Positions 2,567-14,510 of a stretch of DNA of 16,721 bases are shown here, piece by piece; the first letter of the stretch is position 1; each line of letters starts with the position of its first letter. The translations under genes and the position numbers were made by a program. Origin of the DNA: Methanomassiliicoccales archaeon (lineage in GTDB: Archaea > Thermoplasmatota > Thermoplasmata > Methanomassiliicoccales > UBA472). The notes beneath the pieces are model-generated. The model had not been told where the DNA came from and searched no databases. It saw nothing but the letters and a program-made list of their open reading frames with translations. The DNA lies in the NCBI GenBank assembly GCA_028679935.1, contig JAJRAL010000016.1, positions 1 through 16,721 of the forward strand, given 5' to 3'.

Positions 2567-3100
2567 GTGCCCAGAATGATTGCCGACCCCGAGTTGTCAA
2601 CCGGAAGATACGCCACGGTGACCATCGGCGCCGGCGCCAGGGCGATCGCGCTAGACTTCGGGCGCACCTATCTTGTCGTCGAACAGAGGGTCGACAAAGC
2701 CTTCAGGATCGCCGATGACTTCGTCCGGAACGGCAGCGGCGTGCTCTGCATCTCCAGGCTTCACCCCGACATGGTCCGGGAACGACTGCCGACCGTCAAC
2801 GTCTCGAACATCTGGCTCAGCGAGCGCCCGGGGCCGCAGAACCTCGCACCGGGGGAACTGACGAAACTGGTGCAGAAGGTTATGGATTTCACAAAGGAGA
2901 ACGAGCGCTCGATCGTCCTCATCGACGGCATCGAGTACCTCTCGCTCTACAGCGACTTCCACAAGCTCCAGATGTTCTTCGAGCAGCTGAACGACATAAT
3001 GATGGAGACGGGGTCGATCCTTCTCGTCGCGATGGATCCTAGACTGTTTGACCCGCGCTCATTGGCTCGCTTGAGACGGTTTGCTGAGGTTGTGAGCTGA
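2567..3100 (+). CDS. DUF835 domain protein, copy 1
   Basis: This is a stand-alone DUF835 protein of unknown function, a family common in Thermoplasmata and other Euryarchaeota, often beside or fused to signal-transduction domains. The GTG at 2567 or the ATG at 2576 may be the start (177 or 174 residues); a stop at 2516 limits the frame. It has the family pattern: a YLVVEQRVDKAF opening, GVLCISRLHPDMV, a hydrophobic strand ending in acid (IVLIDGIEYL) and LLVAMDPRLFDPRSL. The LIDGIEYL block resembles a Walker B strand, but there is no P-loop, so a degenerate RecA-like fold is possible (inference). A TATA-like AAAGTATTAA lies at 2509-2518. Its last 62 bp overlap the antisense second DUF835 gene. 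Confidence 0.85.
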   Translation: MPRMIADPELSTGRYATVTIGAGARAIALDFGRTYLVVEQRVDKAFRIADDFVRNGSGVLCISRLHPDMVRERLPTVNVSNIWLSERPGPQNLAPGELTKLVQKVMDFTKENERSIVLIDGIEYLSLYSDFHKLQMFFEQLNDIMMETGSILLVAMDPRLFDPRSLARLRRFAEVVS

Positions 3101-3536
3101 AGGCCGGGGACATCTCCTCGGGGGTCAGCCGGGGGAACTCCGCATAGAGGCGGTCCAGCTCACGTGGCTCGAACGTCAACGGGTCGATCGAGACGAGCAT
3201 CTCCGCGCCGACCCTTGCCAGCGATGCCTCGATCTCCTTGAGGAACGCCAGCACCTTGTTCATTTCGTTGTACAACAGGATGTACTCCAGCCCGTCCAGG
3301 AAGACGACGGCGTCCTCCACGAGCGAGCCGACGATGGCCTTGGACACGGAACCGAGGACCTTCGGCGAGAGCACGTCCTTCCCCTTGCAGCTGCTCAGCC
3401 AGTAACACCTTGCCTTGGGCAAGTCGAACTTCTGCTCGACATACTCAGGGTGAAGGCGGCTGACGCACACGCCCTGCCTGCCTGACTTGAGGATGCTGGA
3501 ATACACCTGGAAGCCTTTCCTCGGGTATCCCTCCAT
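3039..3536 (-). CDS. DUF835 domain protein, copy 2
   Basis: A second stand-alone DUF835 protein (165 residues from the ATG at 3536; a TTG lies directly before it). It follows copy 1 block for block: GVCVSRLHPEYV against GVLCISRLHPDMV, VVFLDGLEYILLYNEMNKV against IVLIDGIEYLSLYSDFHKL, and MLVSIDPLTFEPREL against LLVAMDPRLFDPRSL. Reading upstream in frame gives TIKNGRRISLL before the methionine, which resembles the missing N-terminal part of the domain. The annotated protein may thus be slightly short, with a non-standard start near 3566-3593. The Ser/Gln-rich tail of about 20 residues past the domain is the part that overlaps copy 1. It is divergent from the STAND regulator at 3689. Confidence 0.82.
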   Translation of the reverse strand: MEGYPRKGFQVYSSILKSGRQGVCVSRLHPEYVEQKFDLPKARCYWLSSCKGKDVLSPKVLGSVSKAIVGSLVEDAVVFLDGLEYILLYNEMNKVLAFLKEIEASLARVGAEMLVSIDPLTFEPRELDRLYAEFPRLTPEEMSPAFSSQPQQTVSSEPMSAGQTV

Positions 3537-3614
3537 CAACAGCGAGATCCTTCGACCATTCTTAATCGTGGTTGCTGCCTCCTTGCGCTTGACTCAGAAT
3601 CGAGCGCCCTTGGG

Positions 3615-6507: not shown

Positions 6508-6777
6508 TCAGTGAGGATCCATGCCCGGTATGTTGTGCGGATCCATTCCTGGGATGTTGTGTGGGTCCATGCCAGGTATGTTGTGAGGATCCATTCCGGG
6601 GATGTTGTGCGGATCCATTCCTGGGATGTTGTGTGGGTCCATGCCAGGTATGTTGTGAGGATCCATTCCGGGGATGTTCAGATTTGCTGATACGGCACCT
6701 GTGCTAACGACTGCGAGCCCTAGTGCGGCGGACATGAACAGGAACGCCGCCGCTACTGTCACCAACTTGCGATTCAT
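6508..6777 (-). CDS. Secreted octapeptide-repeat protein, 7 x NIPGMDPH
   Basis: I do not recognise this 89-residue protein. Residues 1-31 form a textbook signal peptide: MNRK, a hydrophobic core of about 20 residues, and the cleavage motif AVSA. The mature part is only Asn-Leu followed by seven identical NIPGMDPH units (34-89), with no anchor or other domain. Each unit offers one Met, one Asp and one His, so metal binding is conceivable, but that is inference. The reading frame is well supported: a GGGTGA ribosome-binding site lies 4 nt before the ATG, a TATA box sits upstream at 6823-6830, and every base difference between repeat units is silent in this frame only. It is divergent from the HAD phosphatase and convergent with the STAND gene. 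Confidence 0.82.
   Translation of the reverse strand: MNRKLVTVAAAFLFMSAALGLAVVSTGAVSANLNIPGMDPHNIPGMDPHNIPGMDPHNIPGMDPHNIPGMDPHNIPGMDPHNIPGMDPH
6511..6678 (-). repeat. 24-bp tandem repeat x7 with exact 72-bp duplication
   Basis: Seven 24-bp units lie head to tail. Units 2-4 (6535-6606) and units 5-7 (6607-6678) are identical base for base, so a three-unit block was duplicated recently. The single units differ from each other only at third codon positions of the minus-strand frame. The array encodes the NIPGMDPH repeats. Confidence 0.95.
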
Positions 6778-8233: not shown

Positions 8234-10747
8234 ATGGCCGAAGGAGAAGAGTCGGGCCAGAAGGCGAGGTCGCACTCGGACAAGCGGACGACCTCGTTCG
8301 GTCTCACCGGGATGACCTGCGCGACCTGCGCCGAGACTATCCAGCGCAGCCTCTCCGACGTGATGGGGGTCGACCAGGCGGGGGTCAACTTCGCGACCGA
8401 GAGGGCGACGGTCACCTATGATCCGAACAAGGTCGGCATCGAGAAGCTCACCCAGGCGGTCAAGGAGGTGGGGTACGGGGTCATCGTCAACGACGCGACG
8501 ATCTCGGTCGGAGGGATGACCTGCGCCACCTGCGTCGAGACGATCGAGACGGCCCTGATGGAGCTCGACGGGGTGCAGTCCGCCTCGGCGAACCTCGCCA
8601 CGGAGAAGGTGCGGGTCGTCTACGACCCGTCAAGGGTCAGGATCGCTGACATCAAGCGCAAGATCCGCGAGGTCGGCTACGACGTGCTCGAGGCGGAGAC
8701 GAGGGACGCGGAGAAGGAGGCGAGGCAGAAGGAGATGCTGCGCCAGAGGCGCCTCCTGATCTTCGCCGCGACGCTCTCCGTGCCGACGCTCGCCCTCTCG
8801 CTGCTCATGGCCTTCACCTCCCTCGGGCAGATGGACTTCTTCGTCTCCTACGGCAACTTCATCCTGTTCCTTCTCGCGACCCCGGTCCAGTTCATCGCCG
8901 GCTACCACTTCTACGTCAGCGCCTGGATAGCGCTGAAGAACCGTTCGGCGACGATGGACACCCTGATCGCGGTCGGCACCTCGGCGGCCTACATCTACTC
9001 CCTGGCCGTCGTGTTCGCACCGGGCGCGGTCGCCTTTCATGAGACGTACTTCGACACCGCCGCGATGATCATCACCCTGATCCTCTTCGGCAAGTACCTC
9101 GAGGCGAAGGCGAAGGGCTCGACCTCGGAGGCGATCAGGAAGCTCATCGACCTGCAGGCGAAGACGGCGCGAGTGGTGCGCGAAGGCAATGAGGTCGAGG
9201 TCCCGGTCGACGAGGTAGACGTGGGCGAGATCTTCGTCGTCAGGCCAGGCGAGAAGATCCCGACAGACGGCGTCGTCATCGAAGGCAGCTCGGCCGTCGA
9301 CGAGTCGATGCTGACCGGGGAGAGCATCCCGGTCGAAAAGGGCGTCGACTCGGAGGTCATCGGTGGCTCCCTCAACAAGAACGGGCTGCTAAAGGCGAGG
9401 GCGAGCCGTGTCGGGGCGGACACCGCCCTGGCCCAAATCGTGAGACTGGTCGAGGAGGCGCAGAGCGGAAAGGCGCCTGTCCAGAGGCTCGCGGACCGCG
9501 TGGCCGGCGTGTTCGTGCCGGCGGTCATCGGCATCGCGATCGCCACCTTCCTCGTCTGGTACTTCTTCGCCTACGACCAGTTCGCCATCGCCGCGCCGAG
9601 GTTCATCTTCTCCCTGACCGCGTTCATCTCCGTGCTCGTCATCGCCTGCCCCTGCGCCCTCGGGCTCGCCACGCCGACGGCGATAATGGTCGGGACCGGG
9701 AGGGGGGCGGAGAACGGCATATTGGTCAAGAGCGGTGAGGCGCTAGAGGTCGCCGGCAACATCCAGACCGTCGTCTTCGACAAGACTGGCACGCTGACGA
9801 AAGGCATGCCGGAGGTCACGGACGTCTTCGCGTTCGGCCTGCCCGAGGACGACGTCATCAGGTTCGCCAGCATCGCCGAGAAGGGCTCGGAGCATCCCCT
9901 TGGCCAGGCGATCATGAGGAAGGCCGGCTCGAAGGGAATGGACGTTCCCGACGCGGCGACGTTCGAGGGCCTTCCGGGGTTGGGCGTCAGGGCGGAGCAC
10001 GAGGGGAGATCGATCCTCGTCGGCAACCGCCGCCTCTTCAGCGACCTCGAGATCAAGCTCGACGAGAAGGTCGAGACGGTGGTGCGGAAGGCCGAGGCGA
10101 AGGGCATGACCGCGATGATCCTCGGCGTCGATAGCAGCGTGGTCGGCGTCCTCGCGGTGGCGGACGTCATCAAGCCCGAGGCGGTGGAGGCGGTCGAGGC
10201 TCTCAAGGGCATGGGCATCGAGGTGGCCATGCTGACGGGCGACAACCGGCGCACCGCGGACGTTATCGCGAAGCAGCTCGGCATCACACGCGTCCTCGCG
10301 GAGGTCCTTCCCGAGGACAAGGCGAAGGAGGTCGAGAAGCTTCAGAAGGAGGGGAGGATCGTGGCGATGGTCGGCGACGGCGTGAACGACGCTCCCGCGC
10401 TAGCGAAGGCGGACGTCGGCATTGCGATCGGTTCCGGCACTGACGTCGCCATCGAGACCGGTACGATCGTCTTGGTCAGGAACGACGTGAGGGACGTCGT
10501 TGCGGCGATCCAACTGTCGAGGAGGACGATGCAGAAGATAAGGCAGAACCTCTTCTGGGCGTTCGGCTACAACACCGCCGGGATCCCGATCGCGGCGGGC
10601 ATCCTGTTCCCGTTCTTCAACGTGCTCCTGCCCCCGATCGTCGCGGCCGCGGCGATGGCCTTCAGCTCGGTGACGGTCGTCTCGAACGCGGCCCTGCTCA
10701 AGCGTTACACTCCCGAGATAAAGCGGAGACGTGAGGTGAAGAAATGA
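8234..10747 (+). CDS. copA: Copper-exporting P1B-type ATPase CopA
   Basis: This 837-residue protein pumps Cu(I) across the membrane using ATP. It has two N-terminal heavy-metal domains, each with GMTCATC (Cys29/32 and Cys97/100). These are followed by the P1B membrane helices, the TGES actuator loop (361-364), the CPC metal site (C472, C474), the phosphorylated D516 in DKTGT, HP at 554-555 and GDGVNDAP (714-721). The CPC motif with YN in helix 7 (FGYNTAG) and MAFSS in helix 8 marks the Cu(I)-specific P1B-1 group. The frame opens at TTG 8213, but ATG 8234 matches the family start. The stop overlaps the start of the YHS gene, so both should be translated together. The spacer before it (8096-8233) shows no protein gene. 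Confidence 0.96.
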
Positions 10748-11357: not shown

Positions 11358-12932
11358 CTAGTGCCGGTGCTCTTCCTTCTCCTTCTTCGCCCTCTCGGCC
11401 TCATACACTTCGGCCTTGTCCTCAAACTGCTGCTGGCGCGGGAGCATCTTCTTCGCCACGCCGATGCCGTCCATCGCCAGCTCGAACAGACCCGATGAGA
11501 GGCTGATGCCGAAGCGCGTGTCCATCTCGAGGAGATGGCCCGGGTTCATGATCTCGGCCTTGTCCAGGGCCTTCTTAATCGACTTCATCTCCTCGGTGGC
11601 GTCCTTTCCCCTGACGATCTTCAGGTTCGCCGCGAAGAAGGACCCGAAGCCGAGCGGCCGCCCGCCGTGTTCGTATGCCAGGTCGGAGGTCTTCTTGTTG
11701 TAGGAGAACGACATCAGGCTCAGGAGCGAGTCGTTGTCCATGAAGTAGTACGGCATGAACATGACCGTGTTGCGGTCGCACATGATGCCGATGATCGCCC
11801 CCTCCATCTTGAGGTCGTAGAGGAGCTTGTAGCAGCCGTCGGCCATCGCGTCGAAGTCCTTCAGGCGGGCGACGACCTCTCCAGGGATGTTGCCCAGGCC
11901 GACCTCGCGGGCGCGGAACTCGTAGCACCTCTCGTCCCACTCGTGCTGGCCCGTCTCCTCGGGCATCTTCTTGCCGTTGTGCTTCGCGACGATCGCGTCG
12001 ACGAAGGCGATCTCTCTGTCCACGTCCTCCTTCGTGCCGTCGAAGGCGACGTTGAGGATCGTGCCGACCTCCGGGGCGTGCTTCCCGGCCTTGCGCAGGA
12101 ACTCGAAGTGCCTCCCGTCGGAGAACCCGATGTGCAGCGGGACGACCTGCGAGCGGCATATCTCCCAGAGCGGCTTGGATATCGCCTTCAGATCATCGAA
12201 CGCGTAGGCGACGTTCTTGAGAGTGCCGCCATAGGGGTGCAGTTTGAGCGTGACCTCGGTTATGACCCCGAGCGTGCCCTCCGCCCCTACGAGGAGGGCG
12301 TTGAGGTTGTATCCGGCGGAGTTGTCCGCGACGTCCCTGAAGCCCGTCTCCACGACGTTGCCGTCGGGCATGACGACCTTCATGCTGCGCAGGTTCTGGC
12401 CCGGCCCTCCGTACTTGTAGGAGCCGATGCCGACCCCGTCCTTCGCGAGCCAGCCGCCGATCGTGGCGCTGGGGAAGCTGCTCGGATACGAGCCAAGGAT
12501 GAGGCCCTTCTCCAGGCAGGCGTCGTAGACCTGCTTGTACGAGCAGCCGGCCTCCACGATGCAGCAAAGGTTGTCGACGTCGATGTCGATGATCTTGCTC
12601 ATGCCGCCCGCGATGTCGAGTACGATGCCGCCGAATACCGGCATGGAACCGCCGAGCCCCCAGGACGACGCGCCGCGCGGAGTGATCGGGACGCCCTCCT
12701 CGATGCAGATCTTGACGACCTTCTGGACGTCGGAGGTCGAGCGCGGCCTGACGACCACGTCAGGAACGTTCTTGAAGGCGATTTGGGTCTCCTTCGGCAA
12801 GGGAGCGAGGTCGTGGCTGTAGAGCAGCCTCTCCATCTTGCTCGTCTTGACGTTCTCCTTCCCCACGGCGGCCTCAAGCTTCCTCACGAGCGAGGCCGGG
12901 GCTTCCTGCGCCTTTTCCTGAGCGGCTGCCAT
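11358..12932 (-). CDS. glcD: FAD-binding oxidase, GlcD / D-lactate dehydrogenase type
   Basis: The 524-residue protein is an FAD-linked 2-hydroxy-acid oxidase related to GlcD and D-lactate dehydrogenases. The FAD-binding half contains VVRPRSTSDVQKVVKIC, PRGASSWGLGGS (85-96), a YPSSFPSATIGGWLA block and VGAEGTLG (215-222). The C-terminal half ends with NPGHLLEMD, the cap-domain signature. A tail of about 40 residues rich in Lys, Glu and His follows. Glycolate or D-lactate are plausible substrates; in Methanomassiliicoccales such proteins are often encoded next to HdrD-type Fe-S proteins, but no such gene is present here. The start is fixed by a strong GGAGGT ribosome-binding site at 12946-12941. 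An AT-rich patch at 12976-12996 probably holds the TATA box. It ends in TAG. Confidence 0.9.
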   Translation of the reverse strand: MAAAQEKAQEAPASLVRKLEAAVGKENVKTSKMERLLYSHDLAPLPKETQIAFKNVPDVVVRPRSTSDVQKVVKICIEEGVPITPRGASSWGLGGSMPVFGGIVLDIAGGMSKIIDIDVDNLCCIVEAGCSYKQVYDACLEKGLILGSYPSSFPSATIGGWLAKDGVGIGSYKYGGPGQNLRSMKVVMPDGNVVETGFRDVADNSAGYNLNALLVGAEGTLGVITEVTLKLHPYGGTLKNVAYAFDDLKAISKPLWEICRSQVVPLHIGFSDGRHFEFLRKAGKHAPEVGTILNVAFDGTKEDVDREIAFVDAIVAKHNGKKMPEETGQHEWDERCYEFRAREVGLGNIPGEVVARLKDFDAMADGCYKLLYDLKMEGAIIGIMCDRNTVMFMPYYFMDNDSLLSLMSFSYNKKTSDLAYEHGGRPLGFGSFFAANLKIVRGKDATEEMKSIKKALDKAEIMNPGHLLEMDTRFGISLSSGLFELAMDGIGVAKKMLPRQQQFEDKAEVYEAERAKKEKEEHRH

Positions 12933-13000
12933 CTGAATTAACCTCCGTTGAATATGCGACGTGAGATTGTCTGGGGATTATGTTTTCCCTATTTGAACCC

Positions 13001-13067: not shown

Positions 13068-13369
13068 TGCCCGGAGCTTACGGCGCCTCGGGGTACTTCC
13101 TCGCGGTTTCGATCGGCGGGGACTGCAGGTCCTCGCGGACCGTTGAATCCGCGTTGTCCCAGCTCGCACTTCGGGCTCAGGTCCTTGCTCGGACTTTGGC
13201 TCCGAGGTGGGAACCGTTCGCCTTCCGGGAGGGTCCGCAGACGCCCCTCGCCTTATGGCTCACGGCCGTGGTTTCTGGGCCACGATTGGGATCGGACATC
13301 AGCGGTGTCGTCCTCAAACGACACAGGATCCTATCCGATTTCCCCCAGATGCATTCCGCCTCCGGGCAG
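13068..13369 (-). ncRNA. Structured RNA, copy 2 of a tandem pair (unclassified)
   Basis: The strand and ends come from the sequence. TGCCCGGAG near 13368 pairs perfectly (9 bp) with CTCCGGGCA at 13076-13068, closing a molecule of about 302 nt. Inside, GTGTCGT/ACGACAC (13324-13305) forms a 7-bp hairpin and TCGG pairs with CCGA outside it. Further hairpins include CTCGGA/TCCGAG and CGCGGA/TCCGCG. The ends match copy 1 closely: GGCGGAATGCA near the 5' end and GAGGCGCCGTAA near the 3' end. Minus-strand transcription is supported by a TATA box about 27 bp before the predicted start. Open frames here differ between the copies and are interrupted by indels, so a protein is unlikely. I saw no RNase P GAGGAAAGUC or SRP GGAAG...GCAG motif. 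Confidence 0.65.
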
Positions 13370-13390
13370 CTCGTACTATTGTCCGATGTG

Positions 13391-13400
13391 CCATAAATAA
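13391..13400 (-). promoter_or_regulatory. TATA box of RNA copy 2
   Basis: TTATTTATGG on the minus strand is centred near 13396, about 27 bp before the predicted 5' end at 13369. The same distance is found for copy 1, which is the main support for both promoters. Confidence 0.6.
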
Positions 13401-13473
13401 CCTGTCTTTCCGCCATCTGGCCATGCGAACAAGACGCTGTCGCCGACAACATGACAAATATAGGAAATGAGTC

Positions 13474-13769
13474 GCCCGGGGTTTACGGCGCCTCTGGGTA
13501 CTTCATCAGGCCCCGGCGATCCGACGCATCTGCAGTAGCGTTCGGCCACCGTAAGGGTGACGAACCATCTCGTTTGCCGTCGTGTGCATCCCGAAGGATG
13601 AGCACGCTCAGCGGGCGGAATTCGTGTCAGCTTATCGATGTCGCGGCCGTCGATCGCTTCGACGAATCGAAGTTCTTGGGCTTCGAATGGATCCAGCTTC
13701 CGCGGGTGTTGTCCGCAGACAACACAGGCACTTATCTGGTTTTCCCAGTTGCATTCCGCCCCCGGGCAA
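13474..13769 (-). ncRNA. Structured RNA, copy 1 of a tandem pair (unclassified)
   Basis: GCCCGGGG (13767-13760) pairs perfectly with CCCCGGGC (13481-13474), closing a molecule of about 296 nt. Next inside, CTGGG pairs with CCCAG, then CCAG with CTGG, and GTGTTGTC/GACAACAC (13725-13706) forms an 8-bp hairpin with a TGCG loop. The middle holds CTTCGA-TTCG-TCGAAG and CATCC-TTCG-GGATG, both with UUCG loops on the minus strand, and a CACC/GGTG hairpin inside GTTCG/CGAAC. The UUCG loops and the TATA box point to minus-strand transcription. Compared with copy 2, paired positions change together in the closing helix, the CCAG/CTGG helix and the apical hairpin. T-rich sequence at 13468-13453 may end the transcript. 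Function is unknown. Confidence 0.68.
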
Positions 13770-13790: not shown

Positions 13791-13800
13791 GTTATAAAAC
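13791..13800 (-). promoter_or_regulatory. TATA box of RNA copy 1
   Basis: GTTTTATAAC on the minus strand is centred near 13796 and predicts a start at about 13769, just before the closing helix of RNA copy 1. It is one of the best TATA matches in the window. Confidence 0.65.
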
Positions 13801-14288: not shown

Positions 14289-14510
14289 TCAGCGGATCGT
14301 CTGGAGCTTCTCCCTCGTGTCGCGTATCTTCTCGTTGATTCGCTCGATGTGCAACTCATTCCTTTGCTTGACTCGCTCGAACTGCTCGCGGTCGATCTCG
14401 TGCCTCTTGAAGGCCTTCTCCGCCTCATCGATATCGCCGCGGTACTCGCCCTTGACCGCGTTCAGCTCCTTGATCTTCTTCTCGAGCCCCTCCCTGCCTG
14501 AGCTGAACAT
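14289..14510 (-). CDS. Small charged coiled-coil protein
   Basis: I do not recognise a family for this 73-residue protein. It is about half Glu, Lys, Arg and Asp, and hydrophobic residues recur every three to four positions (GLEKKIKEL, FERVKQRNELHIERINEKI), so it should form a long two-helix coiled coil. No Cys and no membrane segment are present, so it is probably cytosolic. Support for the gene comes from codon use like its neighbours, a GGGGGA patch 6 nt before the ATG and a TATA-like GATTATCAAT near 14550-14560. It converges with the DUF3795-like gene. Confidence 0.75.
   Translation of the reverse strand: MFSSGREGLEKKIKELNAVKGEYRGDIDEAEKAFKRHEIDREQFERVKQRNELHIERINEKIRDTREKLQTIR

What the first reader, a model, noticed from the sequence alone, without database searches (positions are those of the whole stretch)
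13068..13769. Two tandem, paralogous ~300-nt structured RNAs with their own promoters
Seen: two minus-strand stretches (13769-13474 and 13369-13068) share conserved end blocks (GGCGGAATGCA at the 5' side, GAGGCGCCGTAA at the 3' side) but have diverged middles full of hairpins. Each is closed by a perfect terminal helix. A TATA box lies the same distance (about 27 bp) before each predicted 5' end. A one-base indel in the conserved part argues against a protein. Known: RNase P and SRP RNAs are of this size, but I find neither GAGGAAAGUC nor the GGAAG...GCAG helix 8. Inference: an undescribed or unrecognised archaeal ncRNA family present as a tandem pair.
Basis: partly seen in the sequence, partly recalled or inferred. 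Interest (0 to 1): 0.88.

Follow-up and report, generated by a model that had tools for sequence, protein, structure and literature searches.

The report
Circular structured RNAs in Methanomassiliicoccales archaea
The window carries two genes of a previously unlisted family of roughly 300-nucleotide folded RNAs found in one order of methane-producing archaea, and one RNA-derived public contig suggests that the family is cut at its base stem and closed into RNA circles whose job is still unknown.

Summary
The two minus-strand stretches belong to a structured RNA family with no Rfam match. Relatives occur in 38 of 147 genomes of the order Methanomassiliicoccales (39 hits, one rejected), at one conserved place upstream of a FAD-linked oxidase gene. 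Helices covary (194 compensatory cells against 53 in shuffles). A+T is 0.90-1.00 at -30 to -25 over 48 copies, a TATA box, and a T-rich tract follows the 3' end. Two types exist: I (A and C, both in the window) and II (B, not in the window). The terminal helix resembles a bulge-helix-bulge, the cutting site of the archaeal splicing endonuclease. An RNA-phage contig begins with 102 nt of one family member in permuted order, its 3' part joined to its 5' part at those bulges, the helix gone. I read this as a circular RNA; it is one contig only, and itself chimeric. RNase P and SRP RNAs are separate genes in most of 25 genomes. Function is unproven; loops complementary to the 16S rRNA 3' end in some groups are the best lead.

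The parts
13792..13798 (-). TATA box of RNA A (TTTATAA)
   Evidence: A+T fraction 0.90-1.00 at -30..-25 over 48 family copies
13474..13767 (-). RNA A (type I) precursor from first to last base of the terminal helix, 294 nt
   Evidence: R1, 110.6 bits over the 5' domain; window A is one of the R1 training sequences
13754..13767 (-). RNA A, 5' arm of processing stem and 5' bulge (inferred cut AA^U after 13754)
   Evidence: bulge-helix-bulge fit; cut inferred from the junction in a relative; ambiguous by two A
13474..13482 (-). RNA A, 3' arm of processing stem (inferred cut AA^A before 13482)
   Evidence: as above
13483..13753 (-). RNA A, inferred circular product, 271 nt
   Evidence: inferred by homology with the junction of L004 RNA A in L117
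13664..13768 (-). RNA A, conserved 5' domain with helices P2, P3, P4 (model R1/R2 match)
   Evidence: covariation
13530..13535 (-). RNA A, P9 hairpin loop CUGCAG
13393..13400 (-). TATA box of RNA C (TTATTTAT)
13069..13367 (-). RNA C (type I, second copy) precursor, 299 nt
   Evidence: R1, 112.1 bits; also a training sequence of R1
13078..13353 (-). RNA C, inferred circular product, 276 nt
   Evidence: inferred as for RNA A
13263..13368 (-). RNA C, conserved 5' domain (model match)
13123..13128 (-). RNA C, P9 hairpin loop CUGCAG
12990..12997 (-). separate TATA-like box of the downstream oxidase gene (TTCAAATA), which argues against the RNAs being its leader
   Evidence: read by eye
11358..12932 (-). 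FAD-linked (GlcD-like) oxidase gene; fixed downstream neighbour
14289..14510 (-). 73-aa charged protein F9, upstream neighbour, found almost only in genomes with the RNA
   Evidence: no Pfam or NCBIfam match

Best explanation
The window holds two genes of a new family of stand-alone, trans-acting structured RNAs of Methanomassiliicoccales. Each is transcribed from its own TATA promoter as a linear precursor of about 300 nt (promoter and T-rich end: shown in sequence; transcription itself inferred). The precursor folds so that its ends form a processing stem with a bulge-helix-bulge-like motif (sequence and pairing: shown). The tRNA/rRNA splicing endonuclease cuts in the two bulges and the ligase joins the cut ends to a circle of about 270 nt (one permuted junction seen in RNA-derived sequence of a relative; enzymes inferred). 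The circle, protected from exonucleases, keeps a multi-branched fold (P2/P3, P4, P5 domain, P9) and acts in trans as an RNA or RNP, in many genomes as a pair of type I and type II. My best guess for the target, marked as inference and given about 0.2-0.25 on its own, is the 3' end of 16S rRNA, approached by the P9 loop of type I, in small-subunit maturation or in control of its availability. The confidence below is for the structured, independently transcribed, circularised family, not for the target; I lowered it from 0.77 to 0.73 when I rechecked how the observed join fits the motif of that very RNA.
For: Covariation: 154 (35 rows) and 194 (40 rows) cells with compensatory change against 42 and 53 in shuffles; covariation score 0.670 against 0.245, and at most 0.118 when slid (the alignments were fitted to the model, which leans towards it). 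On a free MAFFT alignment of six RNAs, 27 of 61 predicted pairs have a two-sided change. Terminal helix: 44 of 49 copies have 7 of 7 Watson-Crick matches against 1.2% in shuffles searched the same way, with several pair types. Promoter and T-tract geometry. One syntenic place: oxidase F1 called in 21 of 24 loci. Processing stem: strict fit (3-nt 3' bulge, 4-bp central helix, 2-3-nt 5' bulge) in 22 of 49, both window RNAs included, against 37 of 9800 shuffles (0.4%); loose fit 36 of 49 against 13%. The central helix covaries: GCGG:CCGU, GCAG:CUGU, UCGG:CCGA, GCGA:UCGC. Circle: L117, a contig with Phage_mat-A and RNA_replicase_B genes, starts with bases 240-288 joined to 15-67 of L004 RNA A, 102 nt exact, implying a 274-nt circle. 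Splicing-endonuclease circularisation of pre-rRNA and of SRP RNA is established in other archaea (PMC7714728 and PMC7038931, passages; PMC4731332, abstract).
Against: The circle rests on one contig, which is itself chimeric: RNA-phage sequence follows after nt 102. Eight viral-collection scans gave no contig with a junction other than L117 (L118 and L119 were unrelated matches); they covered few types, and the pattern was too strict to find even L117. The L004 RNA A stem itself fits only loosely (3-bp central helix, 5' bulge CAA): canonical cuts there would leave one more A than observed, so the join fits only if the bulge is read as AAU with a C-C mismatch, or if one cut is a base off. 13 of 49 copies do not fit even loosely: 6 of 10 type B, 3 of 8 g1, 3 of 5 g3, 1 of 11 g4; no g1 or g3 copy fits strictly. 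The copies are related, so counts are not independent. Enzymes, expression in this organism and function were not tested. The 16S complementarity is absent in g2 and B and weak in the window's own group.
Confidence: 0.73

Rival explanations
1. Same RNA family, but the working form is linear and the terminal helix simply closes the mature RNA, as in RNase P or SRP RNA; the permuted junction in L117 is an assembly or template-switching artefact.
For: Only one junction contig, chimeric with phage sequence; the join is a base off the canonical cuts in the simplest reading of that stem; 13 of 49 stems do not fit the motif; the T-rich tract right after the helix fits a linear end too.
Against: Both segments are exact, come from one RNA, and meet within one base of the places predicted for splicing-endonuclease cutting on both strands; the strict motif is about 100-fold above shuffles, related copies counted singly.
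Confidence: 0.2
2. Type I RNAs bind the 3' end of 16S rRNA (helix 45 strand and anti-Shine-Dalgarno) through the P9 loop and act in 30S maturation or in keeping subunits from initiating: an archaeal analogue in function, not in descent, of assembly snoRNAs or hibernation factors. This is a more specific form of the best explanation, not exclusive with it.
For: The 16S 3' end reads CCUGCAGAUGGAUCACCUCCU in 11 of 12 genomes searched. P9 loops match its complement: CCAUCUGCAG (g1, 10-12 nt in 7 of 8), AUCUGCAG or AGGUGAUC (g3, 8-9 nt), GAGGUGAU (g4, 11 of 11). With 12-nt P9 segments the 16S 3' end is the best of 729 windows in 8 of 8 g1, 5 of 5 g3, 11 of 11 g4 and 3 of 9 gA. In 24 of 49 RNAs scanned throughout, 28 of about 144 12-mers starting at -72 to -55 have that site as best against 22 of about 2052 elsewhere (tally by hand, range set afterwards).
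Against: 0 of 5 g2 and 0 of 10 B; the window's own RNAs A and C rank 16 and 46. With longer flanks g4 falls to ranks 14-51 in 10 of 11 and gA has one rank 1 of 9. Taken singly, an 8-nt match to the last 40 nt of 16S is reached by 4-15 of 100 shuffles. CUGCAG is palindromic and may just be a C-UGCA-G hairpin. g1 and g3 share the loop by descent, so there are about two independent events. Overall similarity to 16S is not above shuffles. 23S could not be tested.
Confidence: 0.22
3. The RNAs are dimers or larger RNA-only assemblies held by palindromic loops (CUGCAG/UGCA), like GOLLD or ROOL.
For: CUGCAG near the tip of the P9 hairpin in groups gA, g1, g3; homo-oligomeric large RNAs are known in bacteria (PMC12286853, start of abstract in the listing).
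Against: No palindromic P9 loop in g2, g4, B.
Confidence: 0.12
4. Cis-acting leader or attenuator of the FAD-linked oxidase gene.
For: Same strand and immediately upstream of it in the loci read.
Against: The oxidase has its own TATA-like box after the RNA in the six loci read by eye; up to three separate RNA units precede it; T-rich ends; the oxidase is kept in 34 of 36 genomes that model R1 had missed, many of them without a recognisable RNA.
Confidence: 0.06
5. Diverged member of a known RNA family (RNase P/MRP, SRP, box C/D), a mobile element pair, or protein-coding repeats.
For: Size of RNase P/SRP; inverted ends.
Against: No Rfam match on the RNAs; separate RNase P RNA in 20 of 25 and SRP RNA in 23 of 25 of the same genomes; family matches at one place per genome apart from G145, where the same RNA lies at the ends of two contigs; lengths not multiples of three.
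Confidence: 0.03

Closest known systems
Circular SRP RNA of Thermoproteus tenax (PMC4731332, abstract read)
   Different: That is a permuted SRP RNA. Here there is no SRP similarity, SRP RNA is a separate gene in 23 of 25 genomes, and there are several paralogues in tandem.
Circular pre-16S and pre-23S rRNA intermediates (PMC7714728, PMC7038931, passages read)
   Same: Terminal processing stem with bulge-helix-bulge motif, cut and ligated.
   Different: There the circle is an intermediate towards rRNA; here it would be the product, and the RNA is not similar to 16S.
Circular omega RNAs and other archaeal circRNAs (PMC12558985, passages read)
   Same: Archaeal ncRNAs with circular isoforms.
   Different: Those are tied to insertion sequences or to rRNA and tRNA; the passages and the term search in that paper show no mention of Methanomassiliicoccales.
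Large structured ncRNAs of unknown function: OLE, GOLLD, ROOL (listing)
   Same: Large, intricate, conserved RNA of unsolved function.
   Different: Described there from bacteria; no Rfam relation found.
U3-type or box C/D guide RNAs that pair with pre-rRNA (recalled)
   Same: Possible base pairing with 16S rRNA.
   Different: No box C/D match in Rfam on the RNAs; complementarity unproven and not in all groups.

Membership tests
RNase P RNA (RF00373) | covariance-model match | tested here: not met
   no match up to E 5 or E 1 on 19 loci of relatives; separate RNase P gene in 20 of 25 genomes
Archaeal SRP RNA (RF01857) | covariance-model match | tested here: not met
   separate SRP RNA gene in 23 of 25 genomes
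Box C/D guide RNA | Rfam C/D-box match on the RNA | tested here: not met
   two sub-threshold C/D-box hits lie outside the RNAs (L020 461-556, L012 1470-1518)
Splicing-endonuclease (BHB) circularised RNA | bulge-helix-bulge motif at the joined ends (4-bp helix between two 3-nt bulges) | tested here: inconclusive
   strict fit, which allows a 2-nt 5' bulge, 22 of 49 against 0.4% of shuffles; loose 36 of 49 against 13%; window A and C fit strictly but with a 2-nt 5' bulge; 13 of 49 do not fit
Splicing-endonuclease (BHB) circularised RNA | 3'-to-5' junction present in RNA | tested here: inconclusive
   one RNA-phage contig with the junction of a relative, 102 nt exact; no second case in eight scans
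Splicing-endonuclease (BHB) circularised RNA | cutting depends on EndA and joining on the RNA ligase | not testable with these tools
   needs biochemistry
16S-pairing assembly or regulatory RNA | conserved complementarity to rRNA in all members | tested here: not met
   met in g1, g3, g4, partly gA; absent in g2 and B
cis-regulatory leader | transcription continues into the downstream gene | tested here: inconclusive
   separate TATA-like box of the oxidase gene in six loci read; no transcripts available

The most novel reading that the evidence does not exclude
A dedicated family of circular RNAs of one archaeal order, produced, often in pairs, by the tRNA/rRNA splicing machinery, that pairs with the 3' end of 16S rRNA and serves small-subunit maturation or silencing in a lineage whose 16S and 23S genes are unlinked: a trans-acting assembly RNA of a kind not known in Archaea (as far as I recall).
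Probability: 0.16. Interest if true: 0.95.

Novelty: categorically new. Interest (0 to 1): 0.85.

Why it matters
Large structured RNAs outside the universal set are few, and I recall hardly any in Archaea. This family has covarying helices, paralogous types, a defined promoter-to-T-tract unit and a circularisation stem written in the sequence, so it can be tested directly in culture. If the circles are the working form, archaea would use the splicing machinery to make a dedicated class of stable circular RNAs, not only intermediates. The P9 loops give a specific target hypothesis. The order includes methanogens of animal guts and other anoxic places (PMC4153887, start of abstract).

Tried and rejected
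Protein-coding reading: rejected (covariation; lengths not multiples of three). Known RNA families: rejected. Mobile element: rejected, since family matches lie at one place per genome apart from G145. Descent from 16S rRNA: local similarity not above shuffles except slightly in g1 (mean 27 against a shuffled mean of 21 and a mean shuffled maximum of 26). Complementarity of the junction motif GAAGUACC to 16S (862 from the 3' end, 17 of 49 RNAs): an 8-mer match in 1480 nt is expected about 2% of the time per motif and the motif is partly in a helix, so set aside. Kissing dimers: not in g2, g4, B. Members outside the order: two weak hits (G317, G184) are without TATA box or terminal helix, rejected; G090 likewise. 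Searches over 40 genomes used strict filters, so absence elsewhere is soft. Script failed (mafft-qinsi not usable), so L-INS-i was used. A pattern for 23S found nothing in 5 genomes, so 23S was not tested. Viral contigs L118 and L119 were unrelated matches. G019 (L064, about 1149-1336, 188 nt) may hold a short diverged member, seen by eye, not counted.

Novelty searches in the held PMC library (no preprints), each seen as a capped listing: 15 of 1,276 papers; 1 of 1; 15 of 15,984; 12 of 128; 12 of 16; 12 of 14; 15 of 44; 6 of 6; 6 of 15,673. None of the listed titles and abstract starts describes this family. The nearest, PMC4153887, was seen as two passages that name a group II intron, SRP and RNase P RNAs and unlinked rRNA genes; its supplementary table of ncRNAs was not looked up (no such look-ups allowed), so a mention there cannot be excluded.

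Rows dropped or limits: A5 had 39 rows, of which the last three were left out of full-length work as chance, and L028 because a contig end cuts it; L101 (G090) was left out. From and 81 one g2 RNA (L020) fell out for lack of the motif. One search scanned 24 of 49 RNAs, the first four of each group. In some searches the 16S of one genome stood for each whole group, and one shared tail for all. Group folds cover 34 RNAs of five groups; g4 was not folded as a group, its P9 was read by eye.

Full report
Observation. The minus strand of the window carries two stretches with shared ends and diverged middles, RNA A (13767-13474) and RNA C (13367-13069), 106 nt apart. Their end blocks have no other exact match in the window; both fold better than all their shuffles. 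Rfam gives no match in either (the one sub-threshold hit lies at 9627-9720).

Relatives. A scan of one genome per species (84,980 in the collection) for an 18-base motif of the 3' end found four contigs: three of Methanomassiliicoccales and one of Chloroflexi that lacks the rest of the RNA and is taken as chance. One of them (L004) carries three tandem RNAs, A, B and C, at the same place as the window. A covariance model of the 5' domain from six type I sequences, both window copies included (R1), matched in 25 of 147 genomes of the order. A second model from 40 sequences (R2) matched in 39 of 147, of which one was rejected on inspection. In samples of 400 genomes of the class and 389 of the phylum, which include members of the order, the only further hits were two weak ones without promoter or terminal helix. 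Runs over 40 genomes use strict filters, so absence elsewhere is not proven.

Structure. On 40 aligned 5' domains, 21 of 22 pairs have a compensatory change; 194 cells changed on both sides against 53 in shuffles, and sliding the partner by 1-3 columns drops the covariation score from 0.670 to at most 0.118 (the alignment was fitted to R1). A free alignment of six RNAs gives two-sided changes in 27 of 61 predicted pairs. Folds of five groups (34 RNAs) show a common plan: terminal helix P1; arm P2/P3; hairpin P4; a closed domain (P5) with further hairpins; hairpin P9 near the 3' end. In gA, g1 and g3 the junction mostly reads GGGGAAA or close to it and GAAGUACC. The facing GAA and AGUA next to a GGG/CCC helix look like a bulged-G (sarcin-ricin) module; that is a recalled consensus, not a test. 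P1 varies with compensation across 49 copies.

Types. Type I (A, C and groups g1-g4) and type II (B, with the hairpin CAUUUUGNGGAAUG, once one base off) were recognised. The type II motif was found at the locus of 21 of the 38 genomes (counted by hand); in 18 of these type I was seen too, while in G004, G130 and G131 only B was found. None was found in g4 loci or in the window, where A and C stand alone.

Transcription units. Over 48 copies the A+T fraction is 0.90-1.00 at -30 to -25 from the first base of P1, and T is raised (0.43-0.67) at +4 to +14 after its last base in 49 copies. The oxidase downstream has its own TATA-like box after the RNA in the six loci read by eye. So each RNA appears to be its own gene.

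Place. In 24 loci compared, the RNAs lie next to an FAD-linked oxidase, called in 21 of them (two contigs, L001 and L003, end there; in L042 it was not called); a copper-type P-ATPase gene lies beyond it (called in 21), and genes for methanogenesis marker 7 (just under the NCBIfam cut-off, over Pfam's) and marker 17, a DUF123 gene and a 73-aa protein (F9) lie on the other side in the window. Of 36 genomes missed by R1, 34 keep the oxidase; of 30 of these loci scanned, 7 showed a promoter-plus-helix candidate, a few more were seen by eye, and in many there was none. F9 was found in 26 of 147 genomes, 25 of which have the RNA (38 with, 109 without); the exception, G147, has its oxidase at a contig end. 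This is confounded by kinship, but F9 is a candidate partner.

Circle. P1 has an outer helix, a 3-nt bulge on the 3' side, a central helix (GCGG:CCGU and covarying versions), a 2-3-nt bulge on the 5' side and an inner helix. This resembles the archaeal bulge-helix-bulge motif, a four-nucleotide helix between two 3-nt bulges (PMC7714728, passage). Strict fits, with a 2- or 3-nt 5' bulge: 22 of 49 against 37 of 9800 shuffles; loose: 36 of 49 against 13%. No g1 or g3 copy fits strictly. A scan of viral contigs with the same 3' motif found L117, two of whose proteins match phage maturation protein and RNA replicase; leviviruses have no DNA stage (recalled), so the contig comes from RNA. Its first 102 nt are bases 240-288 and then 15-67 of L004 RNA A, exact, with P1 missing. 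The join is ambiguous by two A: GU^AAA with C^AAU, GUA^AA with CA^AU, or GUAA^A with CAA^U, each a 274-nt circle. It fits the canonical cut after the second bulge base on both strands if the bulges are AAA and AAU; in the simplest pairing of that RNA, where the 5' bulge is CAA, one of the two cuts is a base off. In the genome these parts stand in the opposite order, so the sequence cannot be read from the DNA as it stands. The following join to phage sequence is probably an assembly chimera, and the first join could in principle be one too; its position on both strands makes that unlikely. Seven further scans found no second case (two unrelated matches), but they covered few types. I infer the same for the window: circles 13753-13483 (271 nt) and 13353-13078 (276 nt).

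Function. The 16S 3' end in the order reads CCUGCAGAUGGAUCACCUCCU in 11 of 12 genomes. The P9 loop of type I matches its complement by 10-12 nt in 7 of 8 g1 RNAs, 8-9 nt in g3, and 8 nt (GAGGUGAU, the anti-Shine-Dalgarno complement) in 11 of 11 g4 RNAs. Singly, only the g1 matches stand out from shuffles (0-1 of 100); 8-nt matches are reached by 4-15 of 100. With 12-nt segments the 16S 3' end is the best of 729 windows in 8 of 8, 5 of 5 and 11 of 11 of these groups, but in 3 of 9 of the window's group (window A and C rank 16 and 46) and 0 of 15 in g2 and B. With longer segments it holds in 6 of 8 g1 and 4 of 5 g3 but in 1 of 11 g4 and 1 of 9 gA. Across 24 RNAs scanned throughout, 12-mers whose best site is the 16S 3' end concentrate at P9 (28 of about 144 against 22 of about 2052, tallied by hand with the range set afterwards). 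Two independent loop sequences support it, two groups contradict it, and CUGCAG may be only a hairpin loop. I rate this at 0.2-0.25. That the 16S and 23S genes are unlinked in this order (PMC4153887, passage) and that the 16S processing stem of Thermoplasma lacks the motif (PMC7038931, passage) make a trans-acting aid thinkable, no more.

Verdict. A new RNA family: real, found in about a quarter of the sampled genomes of one order, probably circular. Function open.

Noticed in passing
L117 (IMGVR_UViG_3300037661_000005) 1-110: Levivirus-like contig whose 5' end is 102 nt of a permuted archaeal ncRNA; probably an assembly chimera, in principle RNA recombination.
   Followed up: partly
window 14289-14510 (-): 73-aa charged protein without Pfam or NCBIfam match; found in 26 of 147 genomes of the order, 25 of them with the RNA.
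   Followed up: partly
window 6508-6777 (-): Short ORF with a signal-peptide-like start and tandem NIPGMDPH repeats (24-bp unit, 7 copies).
   Followed up: no
window 2567-3100 (+) and 3039-3539 (-): Two DUF835 genes on opposite strands whose 3' ends overlap.
   Followed up: no
L064 about 1149-1336: Possible short (188 nt) diverged family member with TATA-like box and terminal helix in a genome without model hits.
   Followed up: no
window 13068-13769: No type II (B) RNA between A and C, although L004 and G133 have A, B and C in this order.
   Followed up: partly
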